From positions 1 through 21,100 of the IMG/VR virus record IMGVR_UViG_3300043410_000577: a stretch of 21,100 bases of DNA; one strand, 5' to 3'. The notes under the pieces were generated by a model. The model did not search any database. It had not been told where the DNA came from and was given only the letters and a program-made list of their open reading frames with translations. Origin of the DNA: a virus. Each line of letters begins with the position of its first letter. Positions within the stretch are counted from its first letter, which is position 1. The position numbers were made by a program, and so were the translations under genes. Below are positions 2,212 to 21,100 of this stretch, piece by piece.

Positions 2212-2378
2212 AGGATAGCTTTCTACTTTTTGTTTTTATCGAGGAGACTTATCGAAACTCCTCTATCTGGGTCTGCCTTCAAGTATGACCTTCAATGTCC
2301 TCGGGCGAACCTCTGAACTCCAATCATACCCAACATTGCCAGCGTTCCATAGTAATATATGGTTGCTGTAACTATCCT
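2212..2378 (-). repeat. E element 1, carrying a pseudoknot-capable insert
   Basis: Outer stem AGGATAG (minus strand, 2378-2372) pairs with CTATCCT (2218-2212). The left arm is followed by TTA and the invariant CAGCA. TTTT precedes it, and the right arm is followed by GTTT. The roughly 140-nt interior contains interleaved complementary pairs: 2283-2288 with 2324-2329, and 2293-2298 with 2333-2338, which is an H-type pseudoknot topology. It also has an 6-bp GAGGAG/CTCCTC hairpin at 2240-2262. No tRNA halves were recognised in this copy. It starts 7 nt after the CCA of tRNA-Thr. Confidence 0.6.
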
Positions 2379-2384
2379 AAAACT

Positions 2385-2460
2385 TGGTGCCCCTTGTCCG
2401 ACTCGAACAGACCACCTACTGATTACAAATCAGTTGCTCTACCAGATGAGCTAAAGGGGC
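2385..2460 (-). tRNA. tRNA-Thr(TGT)
   Basis: Acceptor GCCCCTT/AAGGGGC, anticodon arm ACTGA-TTTGTAA-TCAGT, encoded CCA. Confidence 0.93.
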
Positions 2461-2487
2461 ATTAATTGTTAATGAACAAATTGTATT

Positions 2488-2748
2488 TTACAACTCTTTG
2501 CCTGAAAGGTCAACCTTTCCGGTTTCATATTTCTCTTTACGATCCTGAAATTCTGCTTCAGTTAGTCCATGCCAACCGCAGCAATCGCCTGTAGGGCTAC
2601 GACCGCAACCACATGTACCTTTTTTCATTTCTTCAACCGATGGTGTCATTTTCTTCTTTCCCCATATTAAATCGTAGTTATCACGATATGAGTTGGATAC
2701 ACCTTTCGTTTGAATTGCATCTCCAGTAATATCATTTCTTGCTACCAT
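2488..2748 (-). CDS. small phage protein with Cys-rich CDGSH-like motif
   Basis: 86 aa from the ATG at 2748, preceded by AGAGGAAGAA. The upstream extension of the frame runs into tRNA-Ala and was rejected. The N-terminus (MVARNDITGDAIQTKGVSN, then YRDNYDLIWG) resembles a short motif I recall from many large phages. The C-terminal half has C-x-C-x2-S-P-x3-C-C-x2-H (CGCGRSPTGDCCGWH), close to the CxCxxSxxxPxCDGxH signature of CDGSH [2Fe-2S] proteins but with shifted spacing. A Zn or Fe-S site is possible; the role is unknown. It lies between tRNA-Ala and tRNA-Thr. Confidence 0.8.
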   Translation of the reverse strand: MVARNDITGDAIQTKGVSNSYRDNYDLIWGKKKMTPSVEEMKKGTCGCGRSPTGDCCGWHGLTEAEFQDRKEKYETGKVDLSGKEL

Positions 2749-2764
2749 TACTTCTTCCTCTGTT

Positions 2765-2840
2765 TGGTGGAGGTAAGGAGGATCGAACTCCTGACCTACG
2801 GCTTGCAAAGCCGCCGCTCTCCCAGCTGAGCTATACCCCC
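2765..2840 (-). tRNA. tRNA-Ala(TGC), copy 1
   Basis: Acceptor GGGGGTA/TACCTCC includes the G3-U70 pair, the alanine identity determinant. Anticodon loop TTGCAAG, encoded CCA. Confidence 0.93.
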
Positions 2841-2849
2841 ATTATACTG

Positions 2850-2926
2850 TGGCTCCCCGAGCTGGGCTCGAACCAGCGACACCTTGATTAACAGTCAAGT
2901 GCTTCTACCAACTGAGCTATCAGGGA
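2850..2926 (-). tRNA. tRNA-Asn(GTT), copy 1
   Basis: Anticodon arm CTTGA-CTGTTAA-TCAAG, acceptor TCCCTGA/TCGGGGA, discriminator G73, encoded CCA. Confidence 0.93.
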
Positions 2927-2940
2927 ACAATATATTTTAC

Positions 2941-3135
2941 TTATTCAGTTGCTGTCGGTGCAGCAAAATTATTTCCACGTTCTTTCTTTGTAGACTTTGG
3001 AACAATACTAGCAGCGTATTCTGCATCAATCATCATACGCTTAAACTGATTACGACCTTCTGCTGGACCGCCCATTAACGCGATCATACGTTTTGTAGTC
3101 TTACTCAATTTAAAGTTTGCGTTAGTTTTAGCCAT
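2941..3135 (-). CDS. small basic phage protein, unknown function
   Basis: 64 aa, beginning MAKTNANFKLSKTTKRMIAL, with good start context (AAAAGGAAAAAC-ATG). It is rich in Lys and Arg (pI clearly basic) with a predicted central helix. No cysteines, signal peptide or membrane segment. It fits exactly between tRNA-Asn and tRNA-Ser. I recognise the general type (short conserved phage ORF in tRNA or structural regions) but no function. Confidence 0.8.
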   Translation of the reverse strand: MAKTNANFKLSKTTKRMIALMGGPAEGRNQFKRMMIDAEYAASIVPKSTKKERGNNFAAPTATE

Positions 3136-3155
3136 GTTTTTCCTTTTGTTATAGT

Positions 3156-3249
3156 TGGCGGTGAGCGAGAGATTCGAACTCTCGATACAGGTTTAAGCCC
3201 GTATGCCTCCTTAGCAGGGAGGTACCTTCGGCCACTCGGTCAGCTCACC
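3156..3249 (-). tRNA. tRNA-Ser(GCT)
   Basis: Type II tRNA with a long variable arm. Acceptor GGTGAGC/GCTCACC, anticodon arm CCTCC-CTGCTAA-GGAGG, encoded CCA. Its 5' end overlaps the stop codon of the small gene at 3245-3388. Confidence 0.93.
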
Positions 3250-3388
3250 GTGTTACTTTGCGTACCAGCTTATGCCAGTAATATTTTAAACCTCTCCATG
3301 TTGGCATCCAATCAAACATATCACTTCCAATGCCAACTTCTTTAGGCATATTGCCGTATGCCTTGTTCAGCGTTTCTTTTCCTGACAT
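3245..3388 (-). CDS. 47-aa hypothetical protein overlapping tRNA-Ser
   Basis: Found by reading the tRNA-Leu to tRNA-Ser interval. ATG at 3388 with a strong Shine-Dalgarno (TAGGAG, 8 nt upstream), protein MSGKETLNKAYGNMPKEVGI and onward, ending in a Trp/Tyr-rich basic tail (GLKYYWHKLVRKVTR). The TGA stop lies inside the first nucleotides of tRNA-Ser (overlap 5 nt), so translation to the end and tRNA maturation from one transcript would be mutually exclusive. Function unknown. Confidence 0.75.
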   Translation of the reverse strand: MSGKETLNKAYGNMPKEVGIGSDMFDWMPTWRGLKYYWHKLVRKVTR

Positions 3389-3406
3389 ACAGCTTTCTCC
3401 TATAAT

Positions 3407-3491
3407 TGGTGCGACTGACCAGAATCGAACTGGTATGGCTTGCGCCGAGGGATTTTAAGTCCCTTGTGTCTACCTATTTCACCACAGTCGC
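3407..3491 (-). tRNA. tRNA-Leu(TAA)
   Basis: Type II tRNA, acceptor GCGACTG/CAGTCGC, anticodon loop CTTAAAA on a GGGA/TCCC stem, variable-arm stem, encoded CCA. Confidence 0.93.
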
Positions 3492-3496
3492 ATATC

Positions 3497-3700
3497 TTAC
3501 TGACTTCTGCGCTTCATCCAAGTGTAATCTACACCGTCTGGGCACTTTCCGTCTTTGATGCTATCAGCACCAAACATTCCTACAATTTCCATATCATCGC
3601 TGCTAATTGTTACGAACTCATTCATAATCTTAGCAGTATGCATAGCTTCATCTAATGTCATTACATCAAATGTTACTTTTGAACCTGTTACTTTATACAT
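3497..3700 (-). CDS. hypothetical phage protein
   Basis: 67 aa, MYKVTGSKVTFDVMTLDEAM and onward, acidic, with a beta-strand then an amphipathic helix (DEAMHTAKIMNEF), and a C-terminal basic tail (YTWMKRRSQ). The AAGG about 13 nt upstream of the ATG is a weak, distant ribosome binding site. It ends 5 nt before the 5' end of tRNA-Leu(TAA). No recognised domain. Confidence 0.7.
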   Translation of the reverse strand: MYKVTGSKVTFDVMTLDEAMHTAKIMNEFVTISSDDMEIVGMFGADSIKDGKCPDGVDYTWMKRRSQ

Positions 3701-3751
3701 TGTTAATTATACCTTCTTTTTCCACTCATCGCAACAATGATTTACATTATT

Positions 3752-3827
3752 TGGCGCCTCGTAGGGGTTTCGATCCCCTTGCCTCCGCAGTGACAGTGCG
3801 GTGCTCTCCCGATTGAGCTAACGAAGC
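3752..3827 (-). tRNA. tRNA-Asp(GTC), canonical copy
   Basis: Acceptor GCTTCGT/ACGAGGC, anticodon arm CCGCA-CTGTCAC-TGCGG, discriminator G73, encoded CCA. A second Asp(GTC), interrupted by a 48-nt insert, is at 7812-7934. Confidence 0.93.
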
Positions 3828-4030
3828 ATGAATTAGTTGTAGGCTACGCAATCCAAATCGCCCCTACTTGAGTTGACATCACTGTCACTACGTTGTTAAC
3901 TTCTTAGCTGTTGTAGTTCAGCACAGCAGTTCGGACTTCCTTAATTGGACACTCTTCTTAACGGTTAGCTGCCCCCGACTCGATGAAACTGAGTAAGCTA
4001 TAGTAATCACGTTTACTACCGACGGGATCT
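3828..4030 (-). ncRNA. candidate structured RNA between tRNA-Ser(TGA) and tRNA-Asp
   Basis: About 200 nt without a tRNA or a credible ORF. Several local hairpins are visible on the transcribed strand: GTAGTAA/TTACTAT, ACTC/GAGT, GCTGT/ACAGC, TGACA-GTGA-TGTCA (a GNRA-type loop) and GTAGG/CCTAC next to the tRNA-Asp side. I do not recognise it as RNase P RNA, 6S or any other named RNA. Function is unknown; it may be spacer with processing hairpins. Confidence 0.35.
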
Positions 4031-4120
4031 TGGCGGAAGCGGTGAGATTCGAACTCACGGAGCATTTCTACTCGACAGTTTTCAAGACTGTTGCAATAAA
4101 CCGGACTCTGCCACACTTCC
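4031..4120 (-). tRNA. tRNA-Ser(TGA)
   Basis: Type II tRNA with long variable arm, anticodon arm ACAGT-CTTGAAA-ACTGT, acceptor GGAAGTG/CGCTTCC, encoded CCA. Confidence 0.92.
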
Positions 4121-4128
4121 ATATAAAT

Positions 4129-4213
4129 TGGTGGATGAGGTTGGCTTCGAACCAACAATGCCAGGGGCGGCAGATTTACAGTCTGCTGGGGTTACCAATT
4201 TTCCTACTCATCC
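4129..4213 (-). tRNA. tRNA-Tyr(GTA)
   Basis: Type II tRNA, acceptor GGATGAG/CTCATCC, anticodon arm GCAGA-CTGTAAA-TCTGC, encoded CCA. Confidence 0.93.
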
Positions 4214-4217
4214 ATAT

Positions 4218-4283
4218 ACATTAATGTCCTACAGCTTTAGTAGGCCTCTCACTCTTGCGAATGACGCAGTCACACGTTAATGT
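4218..4283 (-). repeat. stem-closed spacer between tRNA-Leu(TAG) and tRNA-Tyr
   Basis: ACATTAA (4218-4224) and TTAATGT (4277-4283) close a three-way junction with two internal hairpins on the transcribed strand: CATTC-GCAA-GAGTG (GNRA tetraloop) and CCTAC/GTAGG. It is probably a processing structure or small RNA. Confidence 0.45.
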
Positions 4284-4290
4284 AATAACT

Positions 4291-4373
4291 TGGTGCCCCA
4301 GGACGGACTCGAACCGTCACGCTTGCGCACTGGCTTCTAAGACCAGCGTGTCTACCAATTTCACCACCAGGGC
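4291..4373 (-). tRNA. tRNA-Leu(TAG)
   Basis: Type II tRNA, anticodon arm CTGGT-CTTAGAA-GCCAG, acceptor GCCCTGG/CTGGGGC, encoded CCA. Confidence 0.92.
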
Positions 4374-4377
4374 ATAT

Positions 4378-4473
4378 CATATTAAAACACACTCATCACT
4401 TTCGGACTAACAAGTCCCGGTGTGAAGTCCTTACAACCTAGAACTATGTCTAAGTAAAGTGTGTTTTAATATG
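4378..4473 (-). repeat. 16-bp stem-closed spacer RNA between tRNA-Glu and tRNA-Leu
   Basis: A perfect 16-bp inverted repeat (4378-4393 with 4458-4473) encloses 64 nt. The interior has a TCAC/GTGA stem topped by GGACT-TGTT-AGTCC with a GAAA bulge, plus a TAGA/TCTA hairpin. The right arm overlaps the CCA of tRNA-Glu, so folding of this stem would compete with the tRNA 3' end. A long stem like this is a likely RNase III-type processing site. Confidence 0.5.
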
Positions 4474-4547
4474 GTACTCGGTAGGGGAATCGAACCCCTC
4501 TTCCCGCCGTGAAAGGGCGGTGTCCTAGACCGATAGACGAACCGAGC
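4472..4547 (-). tRNA. tRNA-Glu(TTC), copy 1
   Basis: Anticodon arm CCGCC-CTTTCAC-GGCGG, acceptor GCTCGGT/ACCGAGT with a G1-U72 wobble, encoded CCA. It is the first tRNA downstream of the promoter at 4611-4639. Confidence 0.92.
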
Positions 4548-4610
4548 AAAATATCTTTTGAATTTTTAACGAACAATTTTTAGTTAGCTCTATTAACTAA
4601 CTAAGTCTCT

Positions 4611-4639
4611 ATTATATATCCGCTATACAAGTCTGTCAA
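4611..4639 (-). promoter_or_regulatory. sigma70-type promoter inside the tRNA array
   Basis: TTGACA at 4634-4639 and TATAAT at 4611-4616 (minus strand) with exactly 17 bp between: a perfect consensus. It lies in a 120-bp AT-rich gap between tRNA-Arg(TCG) and tRNA-Glu and points into the left half of the array. A TTAGTTA/TAACTAA hairpin lies just downstream of the predicted start. Confidence 0.85.
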
Positions 4640-4667
4640 CTCTTTTTTGGATATTTTTAAATTATTT

Positions 4668-4742
4668 TGGCCGGGCTTGAGAGGATCGAACTCCCACCCT
4701 CTGTTTCGAAGACAGAGATGATATCCATTTCACCAAAGCCCG
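4668..4742 (-). tRNA. tRNA-Arg(TCG)
   Basis: Acceptor CGGGCTT/AAGCCCG, anticodon arm TCTGT-CTTCGAA-ACAGA, discriminator G73, encoded CCA. Confidence 0.92.
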
Positions 4743-4744
4743 GT

Positions 4745-4819
4745 TGGCGCGGCCGATTGGACTCGAACCAACATAGGACACTTTAGAAGAGTGTTGCCTT
4801 TCCATTAGACTACAGCCGC
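4745..4819 (-). tRNA. tRNA-Arg(TCT)
   Basis: Acceptor GCGGCTG/CGGCCGC, anticodon arm ACACT-CTTCTAA-AGTGT, discriminator G73, encoded CCA. Two nucleotides from its neighbour. Confidence 0.92.
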
Positions 4820-4820
4820 A

Positions 4821-4899
4821 TGGTACCCCTGCTCCGATTCGAACGGAGAACAACTTCTCCTTTTGAGAGAGACGACTTTACCAATTTGTCCACAGGGGC
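4821..4899 (-). tRNA. tRNA with CAA anticodon (Leu?), short variable arm
   Basis: Acceptor GCCCCTG/CAGGGGT, anticodon arm TCTCT-CTCAAAA-GGAGA. With U33 fixed, the anticodon reads CAA (Leu UUG codon). The D arm resembles the Leu tRNAs nearby, but the variable region is only about 7 nt, unlike normal type II leucine tRNAs. Amino acid identity is therefore less certain than the gene call. CCA encoded. Confidence 0.8.
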
Positions 4900-4906
4900 A
4901 TCTATC

Positions 4907-4980
4907 TGGTGCTCCTAACAAGAATCGAACTTGTATTGCTACTTTACCAAAGTAGTGTTCTGCCATTTAACTATAGGAGC
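4907..4980 (-). tRNA. tRNA-Thr(GGT)
   Basis: Acceptor GCTCCTA/TAGGAGC, anticodon arm CTACT-TTGGTAA-AGTAG, encoded CCA. It begins 1 nt after the phosphoesterase stop codon. Confidence 0.93.
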
Positions 4981-4981
4981 A

Positions 4982-5587
4982 TTACATTGAAGGACCGTTA
5001 CCGTTCTTAAACCCTACTTCACCGCCTTCTTCTTGAATACGTTTAATAACATCTTCAAACAGTATAGGAGCAAAATCTGGAGTTTGTTCTACGCATACAC
5101 AGTGGTAACGAGTGTCGTTTTCTTCGCTGTAAGTAAATTCACCAGTCCTCACATTAACACCGACAATTTTCTTTACACGATTTGCATGTAAGTGTCCGTG
5201 AATGTTAACACCAAAACGACCTAAACTTTCTGGGTGTACAGGAATGTGACTTAAGATCATTCCGTTCATAACGTGGTACGCACGAAGTTCTCTAAAGTAT
5301 GTGCGATATTCGTCATCTCTAAAGATATCGTGGTTGCCACGAATAAGAACCTTGTCACCGTTTAATCGATGTAATATTTTTAACGATTTACGATTAATAA
5401 CTACATCACCTAAATGGTAAACTTTGTCTGTAGGCTTAACACGTTCGTTCCAAGCCTTGACCATTGCTTCGTCCATTTCATCTGGATCTGTCCAGGGACG
5501 CAATTTTGTAAATCCATCACTTCGGGTAAAGCGGCAAACGCCAGCGTGTCCGAAGTGTGTATCACTTACTAAAAACACACTAGGCAT
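4982..5587 (-). CDS. calcineurin-like metallophosphoesterase
   Basis: 201 aa from the ATG at 5587, which has AAAGGAG 6 nt upstream; the longer frame has no such site. The metallophosphoesterase motifs are in order: D-x-H (SDTHFGH, residues 8-14), GD (YHLGDVV), GNHD (RGNHD), a later H (ILSHIP) and GHLH (IHGHLHANR). All ligands for a two-metal centre are present. Likely substrates are phosphomono- or diesters; phage relatives include nucleotide and RNA-end phosphatases, so a role in RNA or nucleotide repair is possible but unproven. It is the last gene of a three-gene run (6464 to 4982) beginning with a dual-specificity phosphatase. Confidence 0.88.
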   Translation of the reverse strand: MPSVFLVSDTHFGHAGVCRFTRSDGFTKLRPWTDPDEMDEAMVKAWNERVKPTDKVYHLGDVVINRKSLKILHRLNGDKVLIRGNHDIFRDDEYRTYFRELRAYHVMNGMILSHIPVHPESLGRFGVNIHGHLHANRVKKIVGVNVRTGEFTYSEENDTRYHCVCVEQTPDFAPILFEDVIKRIQEEGGEVGFKNGNGPSM

Positions 5588-5598
5588 AATGCACTCCT

Positions 5599-5967
5599 TT
5601 ATTTTTTCAATGCTTCCATAGTAGCAAGGATTTCTGCCCATTGCTCTTGTGGAGGCTTACCTTCATTTAAGTTACGGATAGCCATAAAGTCTTTGTGGTT
5701 CTCGGGAATCTTAAAATAGATGTTTGCATACGTGCAATCAAAGCTATCATCTTCATCGTGGCTATACCATGGGTGCTCTGACATTTCATCAAAGACATCT
5801 TCATAGTCTTCACGATTACCACCACCGTTGCGTGTATGCACAACAATGTAACCTTCGTCTAGGTAGACATTACGAAAGCGACCAAAGTCTGCTGTAGTCT
5901 TGCCTAGAATCTCTAGCAACTTATCTGTGTCGGGATTCATACCAAACAACATATTATACAAACTCAT
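5599..5967 (-). CDS. hypothetical phage protein
   Basis: 122 aa, acidic, not recognised. The ATG at 5967 overlaps the TGA of the upstream phosphatase gene (ATGA), with GAAGG just upstream, indicating translational coupling. It contains RNGGGNREDYEDVFDEM, then FKIPENHKDF and a C-terminal helix (EQWAEILATMEALKK). No catalytic signature. It ends 11 nt before the phosphoesterase start, so the three genes form an operon. Confidence 0.8.
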   Translation of the reverse strand: MSLYNMLFGMNPDTDKLLEILGKTTADFGRFRNVYLDEGYIVVHTRNGGGNREDYEDVFDEMSEHPWYSHDEDDSFDCTYANIYFKIPENHKDFMAIRNLNEGKPPQEQWAEILATMEALKK

Positions 5968-6464
5968 ACATCACCTTCTCTTTCTTTAGGAACCACAAAC
6001 CCCCAATCAGTTTCAACACCGTTAATAGTGTGTGGCTCTTGTTCATCGTAAGTCCAACCTAAAACTTTCATCATTTTATGTTTGACTAGTAAATTAGGAC
6101 TGCGGAAAGCTTCTGCATCTCTAAAGCCTAGCATTACGCCAACTTCAGCAACTGCTCCACTTCTGCAAACTCCTGCATGGCAGTGTACTACAACATTCAT
6201 GTGACTGTCAAGTGCGTGTTGTAATAGAGCCACAAGTTTTACTGCATCCTCGTCTTGAATCTTCCACTTATCGTTAATAGTTTCATCAGACTGTTCTAAA
6301 TCTAAAAATTTAAATTGATGCGTTTCTCTAAATTGATTTGCCGGTTGTGGAAATTCCATATCGGGATCAACTATTTGGATCAACATACTGTTAATACCTG
6401 CTTCAATATGATGTCCTTTTCTAATGTCAGCAAGTGACACATTTTGAATCCAGGGTGTTAACAT
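5964..6464 (-). CDS. dual-specificity / tyrosine phosphatase-like protein
   Basis: 166 aa from the ATG at 6464 (TTAAGGAG, 6 nt upstream). The longer frame would run into tRNA-His. The Cys-phosphatase P-loop HCHAGVCRSG (residues 94-103; nucleophile C95, phosphate-binding R101) matches HCX5R(S/T). An Asp in KFLDLEQSDE may be the general acid. The fold is that of small DSP or PTP-like enzymes; targets could be phosphoproteins, RNA 5' ends or nucleotides. It is first in the operon with the 122-aa protein and the metallophosphoesterase, so two different phosphatases are cotranscribed. Confidence 0.87.
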   Translation of the reverse strand: MLTPWIQNVSLADIRKGHHIEAGINSMLIQIVDPDMEFPQPANQFRETHQFKFLDLEQSDETINDKWKIQDEDAVKLVALLQHALDSHMNVVVHCHAGVCRSGAVAEVGVMLGFRDAEAFRSPNLLVKHKMMKVLGWTYDEQEPHTINGVETDWGFVVPKEREGDV

Positions 6465-6479
6465 TACATTCTCCTTAAT

Positions 6480-6555
6480 TGGGGTGTTAGATGGGGAACG
6501 ATCCCATACTATCGCTTTCACAGAGCAATGTGCAGACCACTACACTACTAACACC
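6480..6555 (-). tRNA. tRNA-His(GTG)
   Basis: Anticodon arm TTGCT-CTGTGAA-AGCGA. The encoded G at position -1 faces C73, the histidine identity element. CCA encoded. Confidence 0.93.
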
Positions 6556-6564
6556 ATAGAAAAC

Positions 6565-6679
6565 AGGTTCTCTTTTTTCGTGCTCCCATTACACCACAGT
6601 GGCGACCAACCCACTGCCGGGATTCGAACCCGGACCCTCTTTTTTGCAGAAAGATTATTTTGATTGCTGAAAAGAACCT
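6565..6679 (-). tRNA. circularly permuted tRNA-Cys-like gene within E element 7
   Basis: On the transcribed strand the order is: AGGTTCT, TTT, CAGCA, then anticodon arm TCTTT-CTGCAAA-AAAGA (6654-6638; anticodon GCA), 4-nt variable region, T arm CCGGG-TTCGAAT-CCCGG (6633-6617), acceptor 3' strand CAGTGG, an 8-nt linker, acceptor 5' strand CCACTG (6602-6597), D arm, then AGAACCT and TTTT. Rejoined at position 26/27 it makes a full tRNA with Cys anticodon and U73. Oddities: no encoded CCA (other tRNAs here have it), a 1-72 mismatch, and the string AAAAAAGAG occurring in both halves, possibly a trace of tandem duplication. The outer 7-bp stem AGGTTCT/AGAACCT belongs to the E family. Confidence 0.7.
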
Positions 6680-6695
6680 TAACGGTCAATAAAAC

Positions 6696-6805
6696 AGGAT
6701 ACATTCTTGACGAATGCTCTACCGAGTGAGCTAATCACGCATGAAGCGTAATGTTGGAATCGAACCAACTACCTATCGTTTGATAGAATTTGCTGTATGT
6801 ATCCT
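6696..6805 (-). tRNA. circularly permuted tRNA-like gene within E element 2
   Basis: Transcribed order: TTTT, AGGATAC, ATA, CAGCA, anticodon 3' region, T arm GTTGG-TTCGATT-CCAAC (6769-6753), acceptor 3' strand ATTACGC (6752-6746), 5-nt linker, acceptor 5' strand GCGTGAT (6740-6734), D arm with GCTC/GAGC, anticodon 5' region, GTATCCT, G, TTTT. The acceptor halves pair over 7 bp (one G-U). The anticodon arm must be assembled from both ends (TTCGT with ACGAT, 4 of 5 pairs); the best loop reads CTATCAA, giving an unusual ATC, so identity is unresolved. No CCA encoded. It lies 5 nt after the CCA of tRNA-Gly(GCC). Confidence 0.65.
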
Positions 6806-6810
6806 AAAAA

Positions 6811-6886
6811 TGGAGCGGATGACGGGGTTCGAACCCGTGACCTCGTGCTTGGCAAGCATGTATTCTACCAACTGAACTACATCCGC
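6811..6886 (-). tRNA. tRNA-Gly(GCC)
   Basis: Acceptor GCGGATG/CATCCGC, anticodon loop TTGCCAA, T arm CGGGTTCGAACCCCG, encoded CCA. Confidence 0.93.
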
Positions 6887-6892
6887 ATAAAC

Positions 6893-7146
6893 TGTCTAAA
6901 GAAAAAGAGCTCACAGAGTTCTGGTTTGAGATCGATGTCTCCGTGGCAACCAGCGGTTACAGCCGCTCTCTATTTGTCTTGCCTAACGTGGAGCAATTCG
7001 AACAGTCAACGGCATTGATCTGTAATACTATCCGTACATATTCTGTTCAAGTGTGAGTTTTATAAACCCTTCAAGTCAGCCCTTCCGAAGCTAGCTATCG
7101 TCCATACGGAACACTTATATCGCCTTGAGCACTTTTACTTTAGACA
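6893..7146 (-). ncRNA. 254-nt stem-closed structured RNA candidate
   Basis: The ends form an imperfect roughly 20-bp stem: TGTCTAAAG plus AAAAGAGCTC (6893 on) with GAGCACTTTT plus CTTTAGACA (to 7146). The interior has no ORF with a start site and no complete tRNA. One segment (about 6990-7040) contains a T-loop-like TTCGAAT without a good stem, so decayed tRNA sequence is possible. Another interior hairpin is GAGCGGCTGTAACCGCT. It fills the gap between tRNA-Met and tRNA-Gly(GCC). Function unknown. Confidence 0.45.
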
Positions 7147-7209
7147 ACATATTTATAGAATGCCAAGTTGTTCACCGCACAACTATGGCAAAAGCGGGGG
7201 TCTGTAAGT

Positions 7210-7284
7210 TGGTGGTGATGAGTAGAGTCGAACTACCACCGGGCTCCGTATGAAGGAGGTGCACTACCGTTATGCTACATCACC
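7210..7284 (-). tRNA. tRNA with CAT anticodon (elongator Met or Ile2)
   Basis: Acceptor GGTGATG/CATCACC fully paired (unlike the initiator-like copy at 1670), anticodon loop TTCATAC, encoded CCA. Elongator Met or lysidine-modified Ile cannot be separated by eye. Confidence 0.88.
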
Positions 7285-7360
7285 ATATGGAAACACTCTA
7301 AATGGCAGCACCAACATAATTATATTAGTTGAATACCACCAAACAGAATGTTTTCATATG
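7284..7360 (-). repeat. 16-bp stem-closed spacer between tRNA-Lys(TTT) and tRNA-Met
   Basis: 7284-7299 pairs with 7345-7360 over 15 of 16 positions, including CATATG on both sides. A CAAC/GTTG hairpin and TGG/CCA pairing lie inside. It touches both neighbouring tRNAs, like the element at 4378-4473, so it is likely a processing stem. Confidence 0.5.
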
Positions 7361-7433
7361 GTAGGGGCACAGAGAATCGAACTCTGATTAACTGGTTAAA
7401 AGCCAGCTACTTTAGCCGTTAAGTTATACCCCC
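7359..7433 (-). tRNA. tRNA-Lys(TTT)
   Basis: Anticodon arm GCTGG-CTTTTAA-CCAGT, acceptor GGGGGTA/TGCCCCT with wobble ends, encoded CCA. Confidence 0.92.
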
Positions 7434-7436
7434 ATA

Positions 7437-7512
7437 TGGTCCACTCAGTCGGATTCGAACCGACACCTCATTGATTAAGAGTCAAGTGCGCTACCATTAA
7501 CGCTACGAGTGG
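7437..7512 (-). tRNA. tRNA-Lys(CTT)
   Basis: Acceptor CCACTCG/TGAGTGG, anticodon arm CTTGA-CTCTTAA-TCAAT, encoded CCA. Its 5' end overlaps a pseudoknot-capable spacer. Confidence 0.92.
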
Positions 7513-7555
7513 TTGGTCGTATGTAATTGTTTTACGTGCCAACCAGGACCATACG
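7511..7555 (-). ncRNA. pseudoknot-capable spacer upstream of tRNA-Lys(CTT)
   Basis: GGTTGG (7511-7516) can pair with CCAACC (7539-7544), and CGTATG (7518-7523) with CATACG (7550-7555). The two helices interleave, giving a pseudoknot. Helix 1 uses the first two nucleotides of tRNA-Lys. Confidence 0.35.
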
Positions 7556-7571
7556 GGGTACAAGGTTGACA

Positions 7572-7592
7572 CTAACGTTTAGCACGTTTCAT
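7572..7592 (-). CDS. candidate 6-codon leader-type mini-ORF
   Basis: ATG at 7592 encodes MKRAKR then TAG, preceded by a strong Shine-Dalgarno (AAAAGGAG, 7 nt spacing). The SD lies inside an even shorter ORF (MFKRRTT, 7590-7613) whose TGA overlaps this ATG. Both are rich in Lys and Arg codons and lie just upstream of the two tRNA-Lys genes. It could be a leader peptide, or the remnant of a lost gene. Confidence 0.3.
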   Translation of the reverse strand: MKRAKR

Positions 7593-7624
7593 GTCGTTCT
7601 CCTTTTGAACATTAAAAAAAATAC

Positions 7625-7679
7625 AGGATGCTTATTTTTAGATTAAAAGTCTAATTATAAAATTTGCTGGACGCATCCT
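7625..7679 (-). repeat. E element 3 (no insert)
   Basis: 55 bp: AGGATGC/GCATCCT outer stem, GTC, CAGCA, then an AT-rich loop containing TTAGA/TCTAA, TTTT before the left arm. It begins 5 nt after the CCA of the two-T-arm tRNA at 7685. Confidence 0.65.
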
Positions 7680-7684
7680 AAAAC

Positions 7685-7806
7685 TGGTGTGTAAGGAAGG
7701 AGTTGAACCTTCAACTGGACCATCCTAAGCGACTGCCGCCACCCAAGGGAGTCGAACCCTTAGCCACGGACTGCCGCCCGGGTGTATACCGTTTCACTAC
7801 TTACAC
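7685..7806 (-). tRNA. aberrant tRNA-like gene with two T-arm motifs
   Basis: Outer features are tRNA-like: acceptor GTGTAAG/CTTACAC fully paired, a Leu-type D arm, T arm GAAGG-TTCAACT-CCTTC, encoded CCA. The middle is 71 nt instead of about 23, with a second T-arm-like hairpin AAGGG-TTCGACT-CCCTT flanked by direct repeats of GGCGGCAGTC. The extra length (about 48 nt) equals the insert in the adjacent tRNA-Asp, but the E-type motif is absent. No anticodon arm with U33 can be assigned with confidence (CTTAGGA, anticodon TAG, is one possibility). It may be a recombined or nested tRNA, or a pseudogene. Confidence 0.5.
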
Positions 7807-7811
7807 ATATT

Positions 7812-7934
7812 TGGTGTCGCTGCTGGGATTCGAACCCAGATTCCTTCCTTGACATGGATTAAAGAAATATGCTGAACGTAACCTAAAACAGGCTCACCCT
7901 TTTATAAGTGTCCTAACCATTAGACGACAGCGAC
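7812..7934 (-). tRNA. tRNA-Asp(GTC) interrupted by a 48-nt insert
   Basis: Acceptor GTCGCTG/CAGCGAC, D arm, T arm CTGGG-TTCGAAT-CCCAG and CCA are canonical, but the gene is 123 nt long. Removing 7858-7905 (or 7859-7906; one shared T makes the junction ambiguous) restores the anticodon arm CTTCC-ATGTCAA-GGAAG, a 75-nt tRNA-Asp. The insert lies in the 5' strand of the anticodon stem (about position 29/30), not in the loop. Confidence 0.8.
7858..7905 (-). repeat. E element 6: permuted copy as an intron-like insert
   Basis: The insert carries the same motif as the other E elements in permuted order: right arm GTGAGCCTG, TTTT, left arm AGGTTAC, GTT, CAGCA. The arms pair over 7 bp with one bulged G, closed by the TTTT loop. 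Exon CACTT can also pair with insert AGGGTG around the 5' junction. At 48 nt it is too short for a known group I or II intron. Confidence 0.6.
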
Positions 7935-7946
7935 AAAAAACTAAAT

Positions 7947-8038
7947 TGGTACCCCCGGCGGGAGTCGAACCCACATTGGCCAATTATCTGTTGCACACGG
8001 GATATAAATCCGCTGTTTTACCATTAAACTACAGGGGT
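7947..8038 (-). tRNA. tRNA-Ile(TAT)-like, irregular
   Basis: Acceptor ACCCCTG/CGGGGGT, T arm GTGGG-TTCGACT-CCCGC and CCA are good. The anticodon loop reads TTTATAT (TAT) but the top stem pair is mismatched, and the variable region is 22 nt with the palindrome ATTGGCCAAT. Amino acid identity is tentative. Confidence 0.65.
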
Positions 8039-8048
8039 ATAAAATTGT

Positions 8049-8126
8049 TGGCACCCCTGGAAGGACTCGAACCTCCGACTCCCACGTTCGTAGCGTGGTA
8101 CTCTAATTCCGCTGAGTTACAGGGGC
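8049..8126 (-). tRNA. tRNA-Arg(ACG)
   Basis: Anticodon arm CCACG-CTACGAA-CGTGG, acceptor GCCCCTG/CAGGGGT, discriminator G73, encoded CCA. A34 is expected to become inosine by host TadA. The gene at 8103-8291 runs into its 5' half. Confidence 0.92.
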
Positions 8127-8291
8127 ATCTTTTATTCGTTCTAAAGCGTCTTTACGCATTTTAAACAAACGATGCTCATTTGGTTTATGAACAACTATGT
8201 ATTCTATACCATCTATAGTTTCAGTCAAGCGGGTATCGTCACAAACAAACTTGTCATTATTCATTCTGTTTTTAAACATAGTTGGTTTCAT
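8103..8291 (-). CDS. small hypothetical protein overlapping tRNA-Arg
   Basis: 62 aa, MKPTMFKNRMNNDKFVCDDT and onward, Shine-Dalgarno AAGGGGAAGG before the ATG at 8291. It is charged, with a short beta segment (GIEYIVVHKP) and basic helices. The last 8 codons and the TAG stop lie inside the 5' half of tRNA-Arg(ACG), a 24-nt overlap. The main body lies in a tRNA-free gap between tRNA-Phe and tRNA-Arg, which supports it being real. Function unknown. Confidence 0.65.
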   Translation of the reverse strand: MKPTMFKNRMNNDKFVCDDTRLTETIDGIEYIVVHKPNEHRLFKMRKDALERIKDAPVTQRN

Positions 8292-8308
8292 AACCTTCCC
8301 CTTATACT

Positions 8309-8384
8309 TGGTGCCGCCTCGTGGGATCGAACCACGTTCCTCGGTGCTTCAAACCGGTGCTATGACCACATCAGCTAAAGCGGC
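8309..8384 (-). tRNA. tRNA-Phe(GAA)
   Basis: Acceptor GCCGCTT/AGGCGGC, anticodon loop TTGAAGC on CGGT/ACCG, encoded CCA. Confidence 0.9.
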
Positions 8385-8389
8385 AAAAT

Positions 8390-8466
8390 TGGTCTCCGTA
8401 GAAGGATTCGAACCTTCACCTCACCGCCCCAAACGGAGAGTGCAACCTGATAACACTTTACAGAGA
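8390..8466 (-). tRNA. tRNA-Pro(TGG), copy 2, degenerate
   Basis: Acceptor TCTCTGT/ACGGAGA, anticodon loop TTTGGGG (TGG), encoded CCA. Position 8 is A instead of U, and the anticodon stem has a T-T mismatch, so it is less canonical than copy 1. Confidence 0.8.
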
Positions 8467-8471
8467 TAAAT

Positions 8472-8545
8472 TGGCGTACCCCCAGGGACTCGAACCCCGA
8501 CCAACAGTTTTGGAGACTGGTATGCTGCCATTACACTAGGGATAC
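8472..8545 (-). tRNA. tRNA-Trp(CCA)
   Basis: Acceptor GTATCCC with GGGGTAC, anticodon arm CCAGT-CTCCAAA-ACTGT, discriminator G73, encoded CCA. Confidence 0.92.
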
Positions 8546-8550
8546 ATATT

Positions 8551-8625
8551 TGGTGGAGGACCAGGGTATCGAACCCTTGTAGTCACGATGCTTGCAAAGC
8601 AACGCCGCCGCCCTCGGCTCCCCCC
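8551..8625 (-). tRNA. tRNA-Ala(TGC), copy 2
   Basis: G3-U70 present, anticodon loop TTGCAAG, encoded CCA. The acceptor (7-66) and T stem are weaker than in copy 1, and the D arm is unusually GC-rich. Confidence 0.8.
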
Positions 8626-8631
8626 ATTATT

Positions 8632-8710
8632 TGGCTCCGCGTGTGAGGATCGAACTCACCTAACCACTGATTAACAGTCAGGTCCCTGCACCTTGCTTGG
8701 ATTTCGCGGA
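8632..8710 (-). tRNA. tRNA-Asn(GTT), copy 2, degenerate
   Basis: Anticodon arm CCTGA-CTGTTAA-TCAGT, T arm GTGAG-TTCGATC-CTCAC, encoded CCA. The D arm is irregular, and position 7-66 is mismatched. Confidence 0.8.
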
Positions 8711-8718
8711 ATAGAACT

Positions 8719-8793
8719 TGGTACTCCGAAAGGGTATCGATCCCTCTTCTCCGCCTTGAAAGGGCAGCGTTCTAGCCAGTAAACTACCGGAGT
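8719..8793 (-). tRNA. tRNA-Glu(TTC), copy 2
   Basis: Acceptor ACTCCGG/TCGGAGT, anticodon loop CTTTCAA on CTGCC/GGCGG, encoded CCA. Confidence 0.85.
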
Positions 8794-8802
8794 ATAAAAA
8801 AC

Positions 8803-8859
8803 AGGATTCGCTTTTTGCTTTTTTTCAATAAAAGTTTTTTAATTTGCTGAATGAATCCT
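8803..8859 (-). repeat. E element 4 (no insert)
   Basis: 57 bp: AGGATTC/GAATCCT outer stem, ATT, CAGCA, AT-rich loop; TTTT on both sides. It starts 5 nt after the CCA of tRNA-Gln and ends 9 nt before tRNA-Glu. Confidence 0.65.
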
Positions 8860-8864
8860 AAAAC

Positions 8865-8938
8865 TGGCAGGCGCATTAGGGATCGAACCTAAACTAACAG
8901 AGTCAAAGTCTGTTGTGCTACCATTACACAATGCGCCA
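8865..8938 (-). tRNA. tRNA-Gln(TTG)
   Basis: Anticodon arm ACAGA-CTTTGAC-TCTGT, acceptor TGGCGCA/TGCGCCT with an unpaired U1-U72 (GlnRS favours a weak first pair), discriminator G73, encoded CCA. Confidence 0.9.
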
Positions 8939-8947
8939 ACAAAAAAC

Positions 8948-9008
8948 AGGATAGCTTTTGTCGCTAGACAACCATAAGTTTAGCTTAAAAGTTTGCTGTA
9001 ACTATCCT
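8948..9008 (-). repeat. E element 5 (no insert)
   Basis: 61 bp: AGGATAG/CTATCCT outer stem, TTA, CAGCA, loop without tRNA sequence; TTTT on both sides. It starts 5 nt after the CCA of tRNA-Ile and ends 9 nt before tRNA-Gln. Confidence 0.65.
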
Positions 9009-9088: not shown

Positions 9089-9098
9089 ATGTCAATAA

Positions 9099-9300
9099 AC
9101 ACTCTCTTACGAAAGTGTGTAGTAAAACAAGCTGGTTGGATCCATTCAAAGTGGAAACGCTATACGATTTCCCAACTTGCTTTACTACGCTCGGTTTTTT
9201 CACACACTACAAGAAGTGCTTCTCATCCCCGAGGCCGCCCTCATTAAAGCCCATGTTTTAAGTGCAGGCAGGGTCGCGTTCCCTATAACACTTTTTGCGA
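9099..9300 (-). ncRNA. structured leader upstream of tRNA-Ile
   Basis: No ORF or tRNA. Stems on the transcribed strand include CTCGG/CCGAG, AGAAG/CTTCT, GTAGTAAA/TTTACTAC with CAAG/CTTG (9119-9188), and ACACTTTC-GTAA-GAGAGTGT (9099-9118) ending 10 nt upstream of tRNA-Ile. It may be a small RNA or the processing leader of the array. Confidence 0.4.
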
Positions 9301-18825: not shown

Positions 18826-19140
18826 TTACTTCTTTCTTTGTTTGGTGCGTTTGACAGGAATCGAACCTGCTTCCTGGAGTTTTAGAGGCTCCGTGTCATC
18901 CATTGACATCAAACGCTTTAAATCTTTATGTTTGACAATTATAACAATTTTGTATGCATTGTCAACTTTAATTGGCAAATCTAAATGCACTGTTACTTCC
19001 GGGCCTGCCATGCTGACAACACGATCATTGCCAACAGTACCAGCAAACGGAATTCCATTGAATTTTCCAAAGACACGATCTCCTATTTCGTATTTAGGTT
19101 TGTATGCGTTCTTCTCAAAATAATCTGCTAAATTTCCCAT
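18826..19140 (-). CDS. small hypothetical protein whose 3' end contains a tRNA
   Basis: 104 aa from the ATG at 19140, where the -10 element ends 6 nt upstream, so the transcript is probably leaderless or nearly so. The N-terminal 70 residues (MGNLADYFEKNAYKPKYEIG, then DRVFGKFNGIPFAGTVGNDR) look like a small beta-barrel/SH3-type domain. The last 25 or so residues are the reading of the tRNA-like gene at 18843-18916. The normal C-terminus may therefore have been extended or replaced when the tRNA arose or inserted. Confidence 0.75.
   Translation of the reverse strand: MGNLADYFEKNAYKPKYEIGDRVFGKFNGIPFAGTVGNDRVVSMAGPEVTVHLDLPIKVDNAYKIVIIVKHKDLKRLMSMDDTEPLKLQEAGSIPVKRTKQRKK
18843..18916 (-). tRNA. 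amber-suppressor-like tRNA(CTA)
   Basis: Acceptor GCGTTTG/CAAACGC, T arm with GCAGG-TTCGATT-CCTGT, encoded CCA. Anticodon arm GGAGC-CTCTAAA-ACTCC with U33 gives anticodon CUA, which reads the amber codon UAG. The 31-39 pair is C-A, and position 8 is A. It lies away from the main array, inside a coding sequence, with its own promoter. Amino acid identity is unknown. Confidence 0.8.
18938..18965 (-). promoter_or_regulatory. promoter of the tRNA(CTA), inside a CDS
   Basis: TTGACA (18960-18965), 16 bp, TATAAT (18938-18943), about 22 nt upstream of the tRNA 5' end. It allows expression of the tRNA independently of its host gene. Confidence 0.75.
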
Positions 19141-20599: not shown

Positions 20600-20649
20600 A
20601 TAAAGCCTCCTTGTATATTATTAACGCCGCAGGCCTAGAAAAAGTTTAC

Positions 20650-20675
20650 AAAAAAATAGGACCCGAAGGTCCTAT
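20650..20675 (-). terminator. intrinsic terminator of the tmRNA transcript
   Basis: ATAGGACC-TTCG-GGTCCTAT, an 8-bp stem with UUCG loop, followed by TTTTTT on the minus strand. Confidence 0.92.
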
Positions 20676-20719
20676 TACTATTTTGGATGACAAGGCATAG
20701 CTGCCTCGGTTCCCGCAGG

Positions 20720-20758
20720 TTATTAAGCTGCTAAAGCAAACTCGCTGTCGTTAACAGC
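20720..20758 (-). other. tmRNA tag reading frame
   Basis: Resume codon GCT at 20758, then AVNDSEFALAA and tandem TAA TAA stops. The ALAA end is the ClpXP/ClpAP degron; the body resembles betaproteobacterial tags (type ANDxxFALAA) with an extra Val. Confidence 0.9.
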
Positions 20759-20880
20759 TACGTCTACTTGGAAGAACTGAAATGCTGATTTTGCATTTAT
20801 AGGTTTTGCTTGATTTACGGTCATCGCCTACCGTGTTGCCGTCTCTACTATCTACCCCTGTCGAAACCATGGCAGGCCCA

Positions 20881-21018
20881 TCATAAGGAATCTACGATTG
20901 AAGCTGATAACATATACATTAACAGACTGACTAAAAGTATTCCTAATATCACAGGAGCAAATACAAATAATCCTGTTAAGAATATAGTAGCCAGTATTTT
21001 AATATGTTTCTTATTCAT
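20881..21018 (-). CDS. 45-aa membrane protein nested in the tmRNA intervening segment
   Basis: ATG at 21018 with AAGGA 6 nt upstream; protein starts MNKKHIKILATIFLTGLFVF, then a very hydrophobic run (about residues 8-38), a transmembrane helix or pair, and a short end (ASIVDSL). The TGA stop ends 2 nt before the 5' nucleotide of the tmRNA coding piece. It fills the whole region that normally is a discarded intervening sequence. Function unknown; a small toxin, holin-like or regulatory peptide is possible. Confidence 0.65.
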   Translation of the reverse strand: MNKKHIKILATIFLTGLFVFAPVILGILLVSLLMYMLSASIVDSL

Positions 21019-21100
21019 CAAACTTCCTTATGGTGGACCTGGCGGGAGTCGAACCCGCGTCCAGAAGTCCTTCGCTTTGAAGGGATTACAACAATTCTTT

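What the first reader, a model, noticed from the sequence alone, without database searches (positions are those of the whole stretch)
2212..9008. Recurrent E element (AGG-N4, N3, CAGCA ... N4-CCT) spread through the tRNA array
Seven copies (2212-2378, 6565-6679, 6696-6805, 7625-7679, 7858-7905, 8803-8859, 8948-9008) share a 7-bp outer stem with compensating sequence differences, a 3-nt spacer and an invariant CAGCA; most have TTTT on both sides. Stem bases vary in complementary pairs (GC, TC, AG, AC, TTCT), which indicates selection on RNA structure. Loops hold nothing, a permuted tRNA, or a structured 140-nt RNA.
Basis: partly seen in the sequence, partly recalled or inferred. Interest (0 to 1): 0.92.

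Follow-up and report, generated by a model that had tools for sequence, protein, structure and literature searches.

The report
Phage RNAs pairing with Ro60-like proteins
The seven repeats are small RNA genes made of one shared 'handle' holding exchangeable tRNA look-alikes; the same RNAs sit next to the gene for a Ro60-like ring protein in very different phages, so phages appear to make their own modular Y-RNA-type particles.

Summary
The E elements are real, lie on the minus strand (the tRNA strand), and belong to a large unnamed phage RNA family: a covarying terminal stem (AG-N5 ... N5-CUGU) and a C(A/U/C)GCAA motif. Of 207 sites found by the 5' motif alone, 155 have the exact partner arm; 2.75 were expected. 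'Empty' loops mostly hold an anticodon arm. Other cargoes are truncated tRNA bodies, permuted capped tRNAs and larger RNAs. E5 is the handle closed as a hairpin inside an in-order tRNA, and about 26 relatives share that form.

The likely partner is DUF2828 (PF11443, phrog_850). A model of it matches Ro60/Rsr structures. It is present in 13 of 14 metagenomic E-bearing records and all 10 cultured phages picked by E similarity. In phages picked only for DUF2828, all 11 strict E RNAs lie within 21-898 nt of its gene. Of 50 DUF2828 genes, 37 have an E RNA within 450 nt upstream, usually ending near the start codon.

Best reading: Y-RNA-like ligands of a phage Ro60, with tRNA-mimic heads. A decoy role against tRNA-cleaving defences is inferred only. 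The handle also resembles dictyostelid Class I RNA (RF01414) below threshold. Splicing or circularisation is not supported. Nothing has been tested at the bench.

The parts
2212..2378 (-). E1: open handle (AGGATAG-TTA-CAGCA ... CTATCCT-GTTT) around a 145-nt structured RNA (class D). In relatives this type lies directly upstream of the DUF2828 gene.
   Evidence: class D upstream of DUF2828
6565..6679 (-). E2: open handle (AGGTTCT-TTT-CAGCA ... AGAACCT-G) around a permuted Cys-like tRNA (anticodon arm TCTTT-CTGCAAA-AAAGA, T arm, acceptor closed by a loop without CCA, D arm).
6696..6805 (-). E3: open handle (AGGATAC-ATA-CAGCA ... GTATCCT-G) around a permuted tRNA-like RNA with acceptor capped by TTCAT; sub-threshold match to Rfam YrlA.
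   Evidence: RF02553 31.9 bits, full length 1-114
7625..7679 (-). E4: open handle holding an isolated anticodon arm, anticodon UUU.
7638..7654 (-). Anticodon arm of E4: TTAGA-CTTTTAA-TCTAA.
7858..7905 (-). E5: closed handle (ATAAAAGG-GTGAGCCT-GTTTT-AGGTTAC-GTT-CAGCA-linker) inserted after tRNA nt 29 in the anticodon 5' stem.
7815..7934 (-). tRNA-like gene (anticodon GTC, acceptor and CCA encoded) interrupted by E5.
   Evidence: tRNA model 44.8 bits over 7815-7934; not called by ARAGORN
8803..8859 (-). E6: open handle holding an isolated anticodon arm, anticodon UGA; best match in the window to Dictyostelium Class I RNA.
   Evidence: RF01414 35.4 bits, gathering 41.5
8818..8834 (-). Anticodon arm of E6: CTTTT-ATTGAAA-AAAAG.
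8948..9008 (-). E7: open handle with a 39-nt insert of the recurrent '..AGCTAAACTTATGGTTGTCTAGCGAC..' type.

Best explanation
Each E element is a small structured RNA gene. A constant handle (terminal stem AG-N5/N5-CU-G-U plus a single-stranded NUW-C(A/U/C)GCAA opposite an A-rich strand) carries exchangeable, mostly tRNA-derived cargo: an anticodon arm, an acceptor-truncated tRNA body, a permuted tRNA with capped acceptor, or a larger RNA. In E5 the handle is a closed hairpin inside a tRNA. The handle is most likely the docking site of the phage's DUF2828 protein, a Ro60/Rsr-like helical ring plus vWA domain, so the pair is a phage version of the Ro60-Y RNA particle. RNAs in the tRNA array are cut out of the tRNA transcript at U-rich flanks. 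One E hairpin at the DUF2828 ribosome-binding site probably lets the protein repress its own translation. The tRNA-mimic heads would offer host tRNA-recognising factors, most plausibly anticodon nucleases, a false target or bring them to the Ro60 ring. Shown by sequence: the RNA family, covariation, cargo types, linkage to DUF2828, and its Ro60-like predicted fold. Inferred: binding, processing, autoregulation and the decoy role (the decoy role alone about 0.35).
For: RNA structure: 155 of 207 against 2.75 expected; 10 of 12 pairs with double changes, 0/500 shuffles. Cargo: 66 of 103 small inserts form an anticodon-like hairpin (7-nt loop, U33, purine 37), shuffles mean 3.7, maximum 9 of 200. 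Context: 184 of 185 elements within 1 kb of a tRNA are on the same strand as the nearest tRNA, and RNWUU sites occur in 92% of tRNA-to-E spacers against 48% of others. Partner: DUF2828 in 13 of 14 metagenomic E-bearing records and all 10 cultured phages picked by E similarity alone, absent from T4, LucasX and 14 control genomes. Ten phages picked by DUF2828 alone hold 11 strict E RNAs, all on the same strand within 21-898 nt of the gene; shuffles give 0.1. Sixteen relatives picked by another gene: at least 5 motif matches in all 8 with DUF2828, and 0-1 in 7 of 8 without. 37 of 50 DUF2828 genes have E within 450 nt upstream. Of 44 E RNAs ending within 35 nt of a possible start of an ORF of 60 aa or more, 35 precede DUF2828. 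Fold: the top 7 PDB matches are Ro60/Rsr/TROVE structures, E 8e-8 to 1.5e-5. The MIDAS residues D-x-S-x-S are invariant. In a Listeria phage the DUF2828 protein was found in virions and matched Rsr by HHpred, with strongly transcribed unexplained RNAs within 2 kb upstream (PMC12282133).
Against: No binding or knockout data. The window, a 21-kb fragment, encodes no DUF2828 that I saw among its ORFs; it is known only from relatives such as G002. Some DUF2828 phages show no E RNA by these patterns near the gene (FADO, EfsSzw-1, ME3, B23). Co-occurrence in metagenomic fragments is inflated because the genes lie close together, and G024 has E motifs without DUF2828. Fold similarity is moderate (TM about 0.5-0.58, 12-15% identity). 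The sequence profile finds no Ro60 and the TROVE HMM does not match. In Listeria phage CKA15 the strongest RNA (26,236-26,727) is not an E RNA. No host nuclease was tied to any cargo.
Confidence: 0.75

Rival explanations
1. E is a small intron or splicing core: in-order copies (E5) are tRNA introns and open copies are permuted intron-exon genes whose splicing yields circular RNAs, including tRNAs.
For: About 26 closed handles interrupt tRNA anticodon stems after nt 28-29, and excision would restore a perfect stem (CTT+CC/GGAAG; CGT+CC/GGACG covary). Open forms place the same core at the ends of permuted tRNAs. RNA_ligase occurs in 9 of 15 records.
Against: Most open copies would give circles of about 20-30 nt holding only an anticodon arm, or tRNA-like RNAs with capped acceptor and no CCA. 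DLP6 has E RNAs but neither PF09414 nor RtcB. No intron or ribozyme family matches. The constant linkage to a Ro60-like gene is unexplained.
Confidence: 0.1
2. E RNAs are free-standing decoys of tRNAs that sponge host anticodon nucleases; the handle only protects the ends from exonucleases, and DUF2828 is a neighbour, not a partner.
For: Isolated anticodon arms with U33 and mostly U36 or A36, many like tRNA-Lys(UUU); acceptor-truncated tRNA bodies with varied anticodons.
Against: End protection would not need an invariant single-stranded C(A/U/C)GCAA and CUGU, nor explain E hairpins at the DUF2828 start codon in over 30 genes, nor non-tRNA cargo.
Confidence: 0.1
3. The hairpins are terminators or RNase processing signals of the tRNA array without function of their own.
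For: U-rich flanks and tRNA-adjacent positions.
Against: The internal C(A/U/C)GCAA motif, covarying anticodon arms, permuted tRNA cargo and copies outside tRNA arrays (LAh_6, HY02, Whirlwind) are not terminator features. The stems are AU-rich and can enclose more than 100 nt.
Confidence: 0.03

Closest known systems
Bacterial Y RNAs / YrlA (RF02553) with Ro60 orthologue Rsr
   Same: Terminal stem joining both ends, tRNA-mimic module (D arm, T arm, capped acceptor), gene next to a Ro60-fold protein, presence in phages. Window E3 and L101 match the YrlA model end to end at 31.9 and 33.9 bits.
   Different: Scores are under half the gathering score (69). The Ro-binding helix of the model does not pair and is replaced by another handle. 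Most cargoes are anticodon arms, not YrlA modules. The partner is DUF2828, not Pfam TROVE. Many copies per genome.
Dictyostelid Class I RNAs (RF01414; Kjellin et al. 2021, PMC7919456)
   Same: About 60 nt, short covarying stem joining the ends, invariant 5' G preceded by A, near-invariant 3' CUGU, motif ..UUACAGCAA next to the 5' stem, variable interior. The Dictyostelium model hits E6 at 35.4 and L126 at 39.6 bits and found E elements my exact pattern missed.
   Different: Below the gathering score (41.5). Spacing from stem to motif is 3 rather than 4 nt. Phage and bacterial hosts, no DUSE promoter shown, tRNA-mimic cargo. The paper reports Class I RNAs as unique to Dictyostelia.
Phage Ro-like proteins (phrog_850, PF11443/DUF2828; annotated 'Ro-like RNA binding protein' in mycobacteriophages; PDB 9l5y Ro60 of Thermus phage phiLo as a structural match)
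   Same: The E-linked protein is this family.
   Different: I found no description, in the open library I could search, of an RNA family for these proteins with this handle and cargo set.
Permuted tRNA genes and archaeal/algal tRNA introns
   Same: 3' half precedes 5' half in E2 and E3; E5 interrupts an anticodon stem.
   Different: Capped acceptor without CCA; a conserved handle stem with motif in place of an intron end; same core on non-tRNA RNAs.

Membership tests
YrlA / bacterial Y RNA (RF02553) | Model score above the family threshold | tested here: not met
   31.9 and 33.9 bits against 69
YrlA / bacterial Y RNA (RF02553) | Conserved Ro-binding helix and motif | tested here: not met
   Helix positions of the model are marked unpaired in the L101 alignment; E uses AG-N5/N5-CUGU and CAGCAA
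YrlA / bacterial Y RNA (RF02553) | tRNA-like module | tested here: met
   Permuted tRNA cargo with T arm, D arm and capped acceptor in E2 and E3; not true of most small copies
YrlA / bacterial Y RNA (RF02553) | Gene linked to a Ro60-fold protein | tested here: met
YrlA / bacterial Y RNA (RF02553) | Physical binding to the Ro60-like protein | not testable with these tools
   Needs binding assay or CLIP
Dictyostelid Class I RNA (RF01414) | Score above gathering (41.5) | tested here: not met
   Best 39.6 bits; window E6 35.4
Dictyostelid Class I RNA (RF01414) | Terminal covarying stem, invariant 5' G, 3' CUGU | tested here: met
   consensus from PMC7919456
Dictyostelid Class I RNA (RF01414) | 11-nt motif CCUUACAGCAA at fixed spacing | tested here: inconclusive
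   CAGCAA and U kept, spacing one nt shorter
Dictyostelid Class I RNA (RF01414) | Dictyostelid genome with DUSE promoter about 60 nt upstream | not tested
   E RNAs are phage genes, mostly inside tRNA arrays; I did not search for DUSE, and no dictyostelid genome was available
Ro60 / TROVE protein (for DUF2828) | Helical-repeat ring plus vWA with MIDAS D-x-S-x-S | tested here: met
   AF2 model pLDDT 79, pTM 0.79; top PDB matches Ro60/Rsr; invariant D-x-S-x-S
Ro60 / TROVE protein (for DUF2828) | Pfam TROVE HMM match | tested here: not met
   PF05731 0 of 18 records
Self-splicing intron or ribozyme | Match to a known intron or ribozyme family | tested here: not met
   No such Rfam match at gathering or permissive thresholds
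Permuted tRNA gene | Processing to a mature tRNA with CCA | tested here: inconclusive
   Acceptors capped by short loops without CCA; RNA ends not measurable here

The most novel reading that the evidence does not exclude
Phage E RNAs and dictyostelid Class I RNAs are one ancient RNA family, both ligands of Ro60-like proteins, carried between phages and amoebae; phages use them as a modular library of tRNA-mimic heads on a viral Ro60 to blunt tRNA-cleaving defences. [quoted passage not shown]
Probability: 0.3. Interest if true: 0.95.

Novelty: new variant of a known kind. Interest (0 to 1): 0.86.

Why it matters
Ro60-like genes occur in 682 of 50,697 phage records with no assigned RNA partner that I could find. 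E RNAs supply one, with a clear binding-site hypothesis and model phages (Listeria P100/CKA15, E. coli Felixounavirus HY02, Mycobacterium Whirlwind, Aeromonas LAh_6). The cargo library of anticodon arms and broken tRNAs makes a long-standing question testable: what phages do with tRNA mimics, and whether they shield against anticodon nucleases. The resemblance to Class I RNAs gives an abundant amoebal RNA class of unknown mechanism a candidate system to compare with. Practically, these RNAs lie inside phage tRNA arrays and are missed or miscalled as pseudo-tRNAs.

Tried and rejected
T4 rnaC and rnaD as relatives: no handle. TROVE (PF05731), RRM_1 (the Dictyostelium Class I binder is an RRM protein), RtcB and RNA_ligase as the E partner: absent or patchy, whereas DUF2828 tracks E. 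Search for more closed forms with CCTGTTTTAGG-N7-CAGCA gave mostly chance hits plus near-copies of the window; the ATAAAAGG and CCTGTNAAGG patterns found true ones. Group I/II introns, ribozymes, terminators and mobile-element inverted repeats were considered and rejected: arms covary instead of being constant, no family match, motif inside. My first scan of the cultured phages used a wrong arm length and was redone. A profile search of DUF2828 against PDB sequences gave nothing; the Ro60 link rests on fold comparison and on HHpred reported in PMC12282133. E RNAs do not coincide with the most abundant CKA15 RNA (26,236-26,727).
Full report
WHAT IS THERE. The window is a complete IMG/VR record of 21,100 bases, a phage fragment with 33 tRNA calls and a tmRNA, all on the minus strand. 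The seven E copies also read on the minus strand and are the only AGG-N7-CAGCA sites on either strand. Six are 'open': UUUU-AGG-N4-N3-CAGCA-[insert]-N4-CCU-G-UUUU. E5 is 'closed': the same arms form a hairpin with loop GUUUU followed by N3-CAGCA, and the 48 nt lie between nucleotides 29 and 30 of an otherwise complete tRNA. Small inserts are not empty: E4 holds TTAGA-CTTTTAA-TCTAA (anticodon UUU) and E6 holds CTTTT-ATTGAAA-AAAAG (UGA). E2 and E3 hold permuted tRNA-like RNAs whose acceptor stems are closed by short loops without CCA. E1 holds a 145-nt structured RNA.

MORE THAN CHANCE. Pattern scans of 2.9 million viral contigs gave many loci with 2-7 copies. In an unbiased test, 207 sites were taken by the 5' motif alone; 155 had the exact partner arm plus CC[AT]G within about 260 nt, against 2.75 expected when arms were swapped between elements, and scrambled motifs gave none. 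In an alignment of 35 small elements the terminal stem is paired in every cell, with double changes in 6 of 7 pairs; the anticodon-arm stem is paired in 92.6% of cells with double changes in 4 of 5. No shuffle of 500 reached the covariation. Variants TGG/CCA and AGA/TCT show that outer pairs covary too, leaving A-G, C-U-G-U and C(A/U/C)GCAA as the constant letters.

CARGO AND CONTEXT. Of 103 inserts of 30-41 nt, 66 form a hairpin with a 7-nt loop, U33 and purine 37, against 3.7 on average in shuffles (maximum 9 of 200). Position 36 is U or A in 49 of 54 five-base-pair arms. Larger inserts are acceptor-truncated in-order tRNAs, permuted capped tRNAs or other RNAs up to about 240 nt. Of 195 elements in 81 loci, 185 lie within 1 kb of a tRNA and 184 of these are on the same strand as the nearest tRNA. 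The RNWUU signal resembling RNase E sites lies in 92% of tRNA-to-E spacers against 48% of other tRNA spacers; release by RNase E is inferred. About 26 closed handles occur in tRNA genes at the same place, carrying anticodons such as GTC, TCT, GCT and CAT on similar bodies; the flanking stem letters covary (CTT/AAG, CGT/ACG).

WHAT IT RESEMBLES. Permissive Rfam scans gave two sub-threshold but full-length matches that coincide with E elements: YrlA (Y RNA-like) for permuted-tRNA copies and Dictyostelium Class I RNA for small copies, E6 scoring 35.4 bits and an element of L126 39.6 against a gathering score of 41.5. The Dictyostelium model also found phage elements with changed stem letters that my exact pattern had missed. 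Class I RNAs have a covarying terminal stem, an invariant 5' G preceded by A, a CUGU 3' end and an 11-nt motif beside the stem, and were reported as unique to dictyostelids (PMC7919456). E has the same parts in the same order with one nucleotide less between stem and CAGCAA. Common descent and convergence are both open; I did not test any dictyostelid genome.

FINDING THE PARTNER. Cultured relatives found by E similarity include Synechococcus BUCT-ZZ01, Stenotrophomonas DLP6, Xanthomonas XaC1 and Cronobacter S13, and Pseudomonas Milchi, Vibrio EniLVp02, PhiImVa-1, BUCT194 and D479, and Aeromonas LAh_6. In LAh_6 a run of eight E RNAs with no tRNAs stands directly upstream of a gene annotated DUF2828. 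PF11443 was then found in 13 of 14 metagenomic E-bearing records and in all ten of these cultured phages; T4, LucasX and the 14 control genomes lack it. TROVE and RRM_1 were absent; ligases were patchy.

REVERSE TESTS. (a) 682 phage records hold DUF2828. Ten taken across that ranking, without regard to E, contained 11 strict E RNAs within 4 kb, all on the gene's strand and 21-898 nt away: three in Listeria P100, three in Mycobacterium Whirlwind, four in Escherichia HY02, one in Campylobacter F336. Shuffled sequence gave 0.1 per set. Fusobacterium FNU3 has one more with a shorter spacer, and Vibrio V07 has E RNAs farther away. FADO, EfsSzw-1, ME3 and B23 showed none near the gene. (b) Sixteen relatives of the window phage were taken by their NadM gene: all eight with DUF2828 carry five or more E motifs; of eight without, six carry none, one carries one at a contig end and one carries four near a contig end. 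The closest large relative, G002 (81% identical NadM), has both. These are fragments, so closeness on the genome inflates this test. (c) Of 50 DUF2828 genes, 37 have an E RNA within 450 nt upstream on the same strand, usually with the last one ending 1-30 nt before the start codon; most of these loci had been fetched by E patterns, so this shows placement, not frequency. Of 44 E RNAs that end within 35 nt of a possible start of an ORF of at least 60 aa, 35 precede DUF2828. In DLP6 the 3' arm overlaps the GGAG of the gene. This placement suggests that the protein binds the handle in its own leader.

THE PROTEIN. Eleven homologues from very different phages align along their length with invariant D-x-S-x-S. 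The AlphaFold2 model (pLDDT 79, pTM 0.79) has a helical N-terminal part and a vWA-like C-terminal part. The seven best PDB matches are Ro60, Rsr or TROVE structures, E 8e-8 to 1.5e-5, TM up to 0.58. PHROGs calls the family RNA-binding protein and mycobacteriophage records call it Ro-like. In Listeria phage CKA15 the same gene (CKA15_055) matched Rsr by HHpred, its product was found in purified virions (20 peptides), and three unexplained, strongly transcribed regions lie within 2 kb upstream; the authors suggested Y RNAs (PMC12282133). Three E RNAs lie 74-283 nt upstream of the gene in P100, and the stretch is 97.7% identical in CKA15. The strongest CKA15 RNA is a different, larger one.

MECHANISM. 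Best supported: E RNAs are Y-RNA-like RNAs of a phage Ro60; handle equals docking site, cargo equals tRNA-mimic head. Weaker and inferred: the heads are decoys or bait for host tRNA-cleaving or tRNA-recognising factors, since they keep anticodon loops and lose acceptors. The intron or circularisation reading is disfavoured because most open copies would yield no working RNA and because it leaves the DUF2828 linkage unexplained, but it is not excluded for the closed copies in tRNAs.

NOVELTY. The phage Ro-like protein and the idea of phage Y RNAs are known. The RNA family, its handle, its modular tRNA cargo, its leader copies and its likeness to Class I RNA were not found in Rfam at threshold or in the open papers searched. 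Subscription papers and preprints were not searchable, and a recent structure of a phage Ro60 (PDB 9l5y) may have an accompanying paper that I could not read.

Noticed in passing
window 7686-7810 (-): An odd tRNA (tRNA model 35.7 bits over 7688-7806) with a second T-arm-like hairpin nested in it and a direct repeat (GGCGGCAGTC); not called by ARAGORN.
   Followed up: no
window 20632-21100 (-): Phage-encoded permuted (two-piece) tmRNA, RF04321 136.9 bits, cut by the record end.
   Followed up: no
window 18843-18916 (-): tRNA with anticodon CTA, called tRNA-Pyl by ARAGORN; probably an amber suppressor.
   Followed up: no
window 4378-4471, 6893-7145, 7285-7352, 9089-9190: Other stretches between tRNAs closed by long inverted repeats (for example TATTAAAACACAC...GTGTGTTTTAATA); possible further structured RNAs without the E handle.
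   Followed up: no
window 6565-6700 (E2) and relatives (L021, L032, L035, L041, L049): Cys-like permuted copies share an acceptor-capping loop GUUGGUC complementary to a GACC just upstream of the handle, a possible long-range pairing special to this subclass.
   Followed up: no
L132 3542-4006: A GOLLD RNA (226 bits) in the same tRNA array as E RNAs.
   Followed up: no
L364 (Listeria phage CKA15) record positions 26,236-26,727: Most abundant phage RNA in the published RNA-seq; about 490 nt, no E handle, three short annotated ORFs without homologues. An unidentified large RNA near DUF2828.
   Followed up: partly
Listeria phage CKA15 gene CKA15_055 (L364 296-1816): The DUF2828 protein was detected in purified virions (20 peptides, PMC12282133), raising the possibility that the RNP is packaged and injected.
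   Followed up: no
L031 4629, L049 7438, L096 960, L025 3023, window 8948-9008 and others: Recurrent small cargoes that are not simple 7-nt anticodon arms: 'GCTAACTTTGGATGTCTAGCGACAAAA' and 'GGCTGTCTGCTAGGACTTTAAACTAG', conserved across phages.
   Followed up: no
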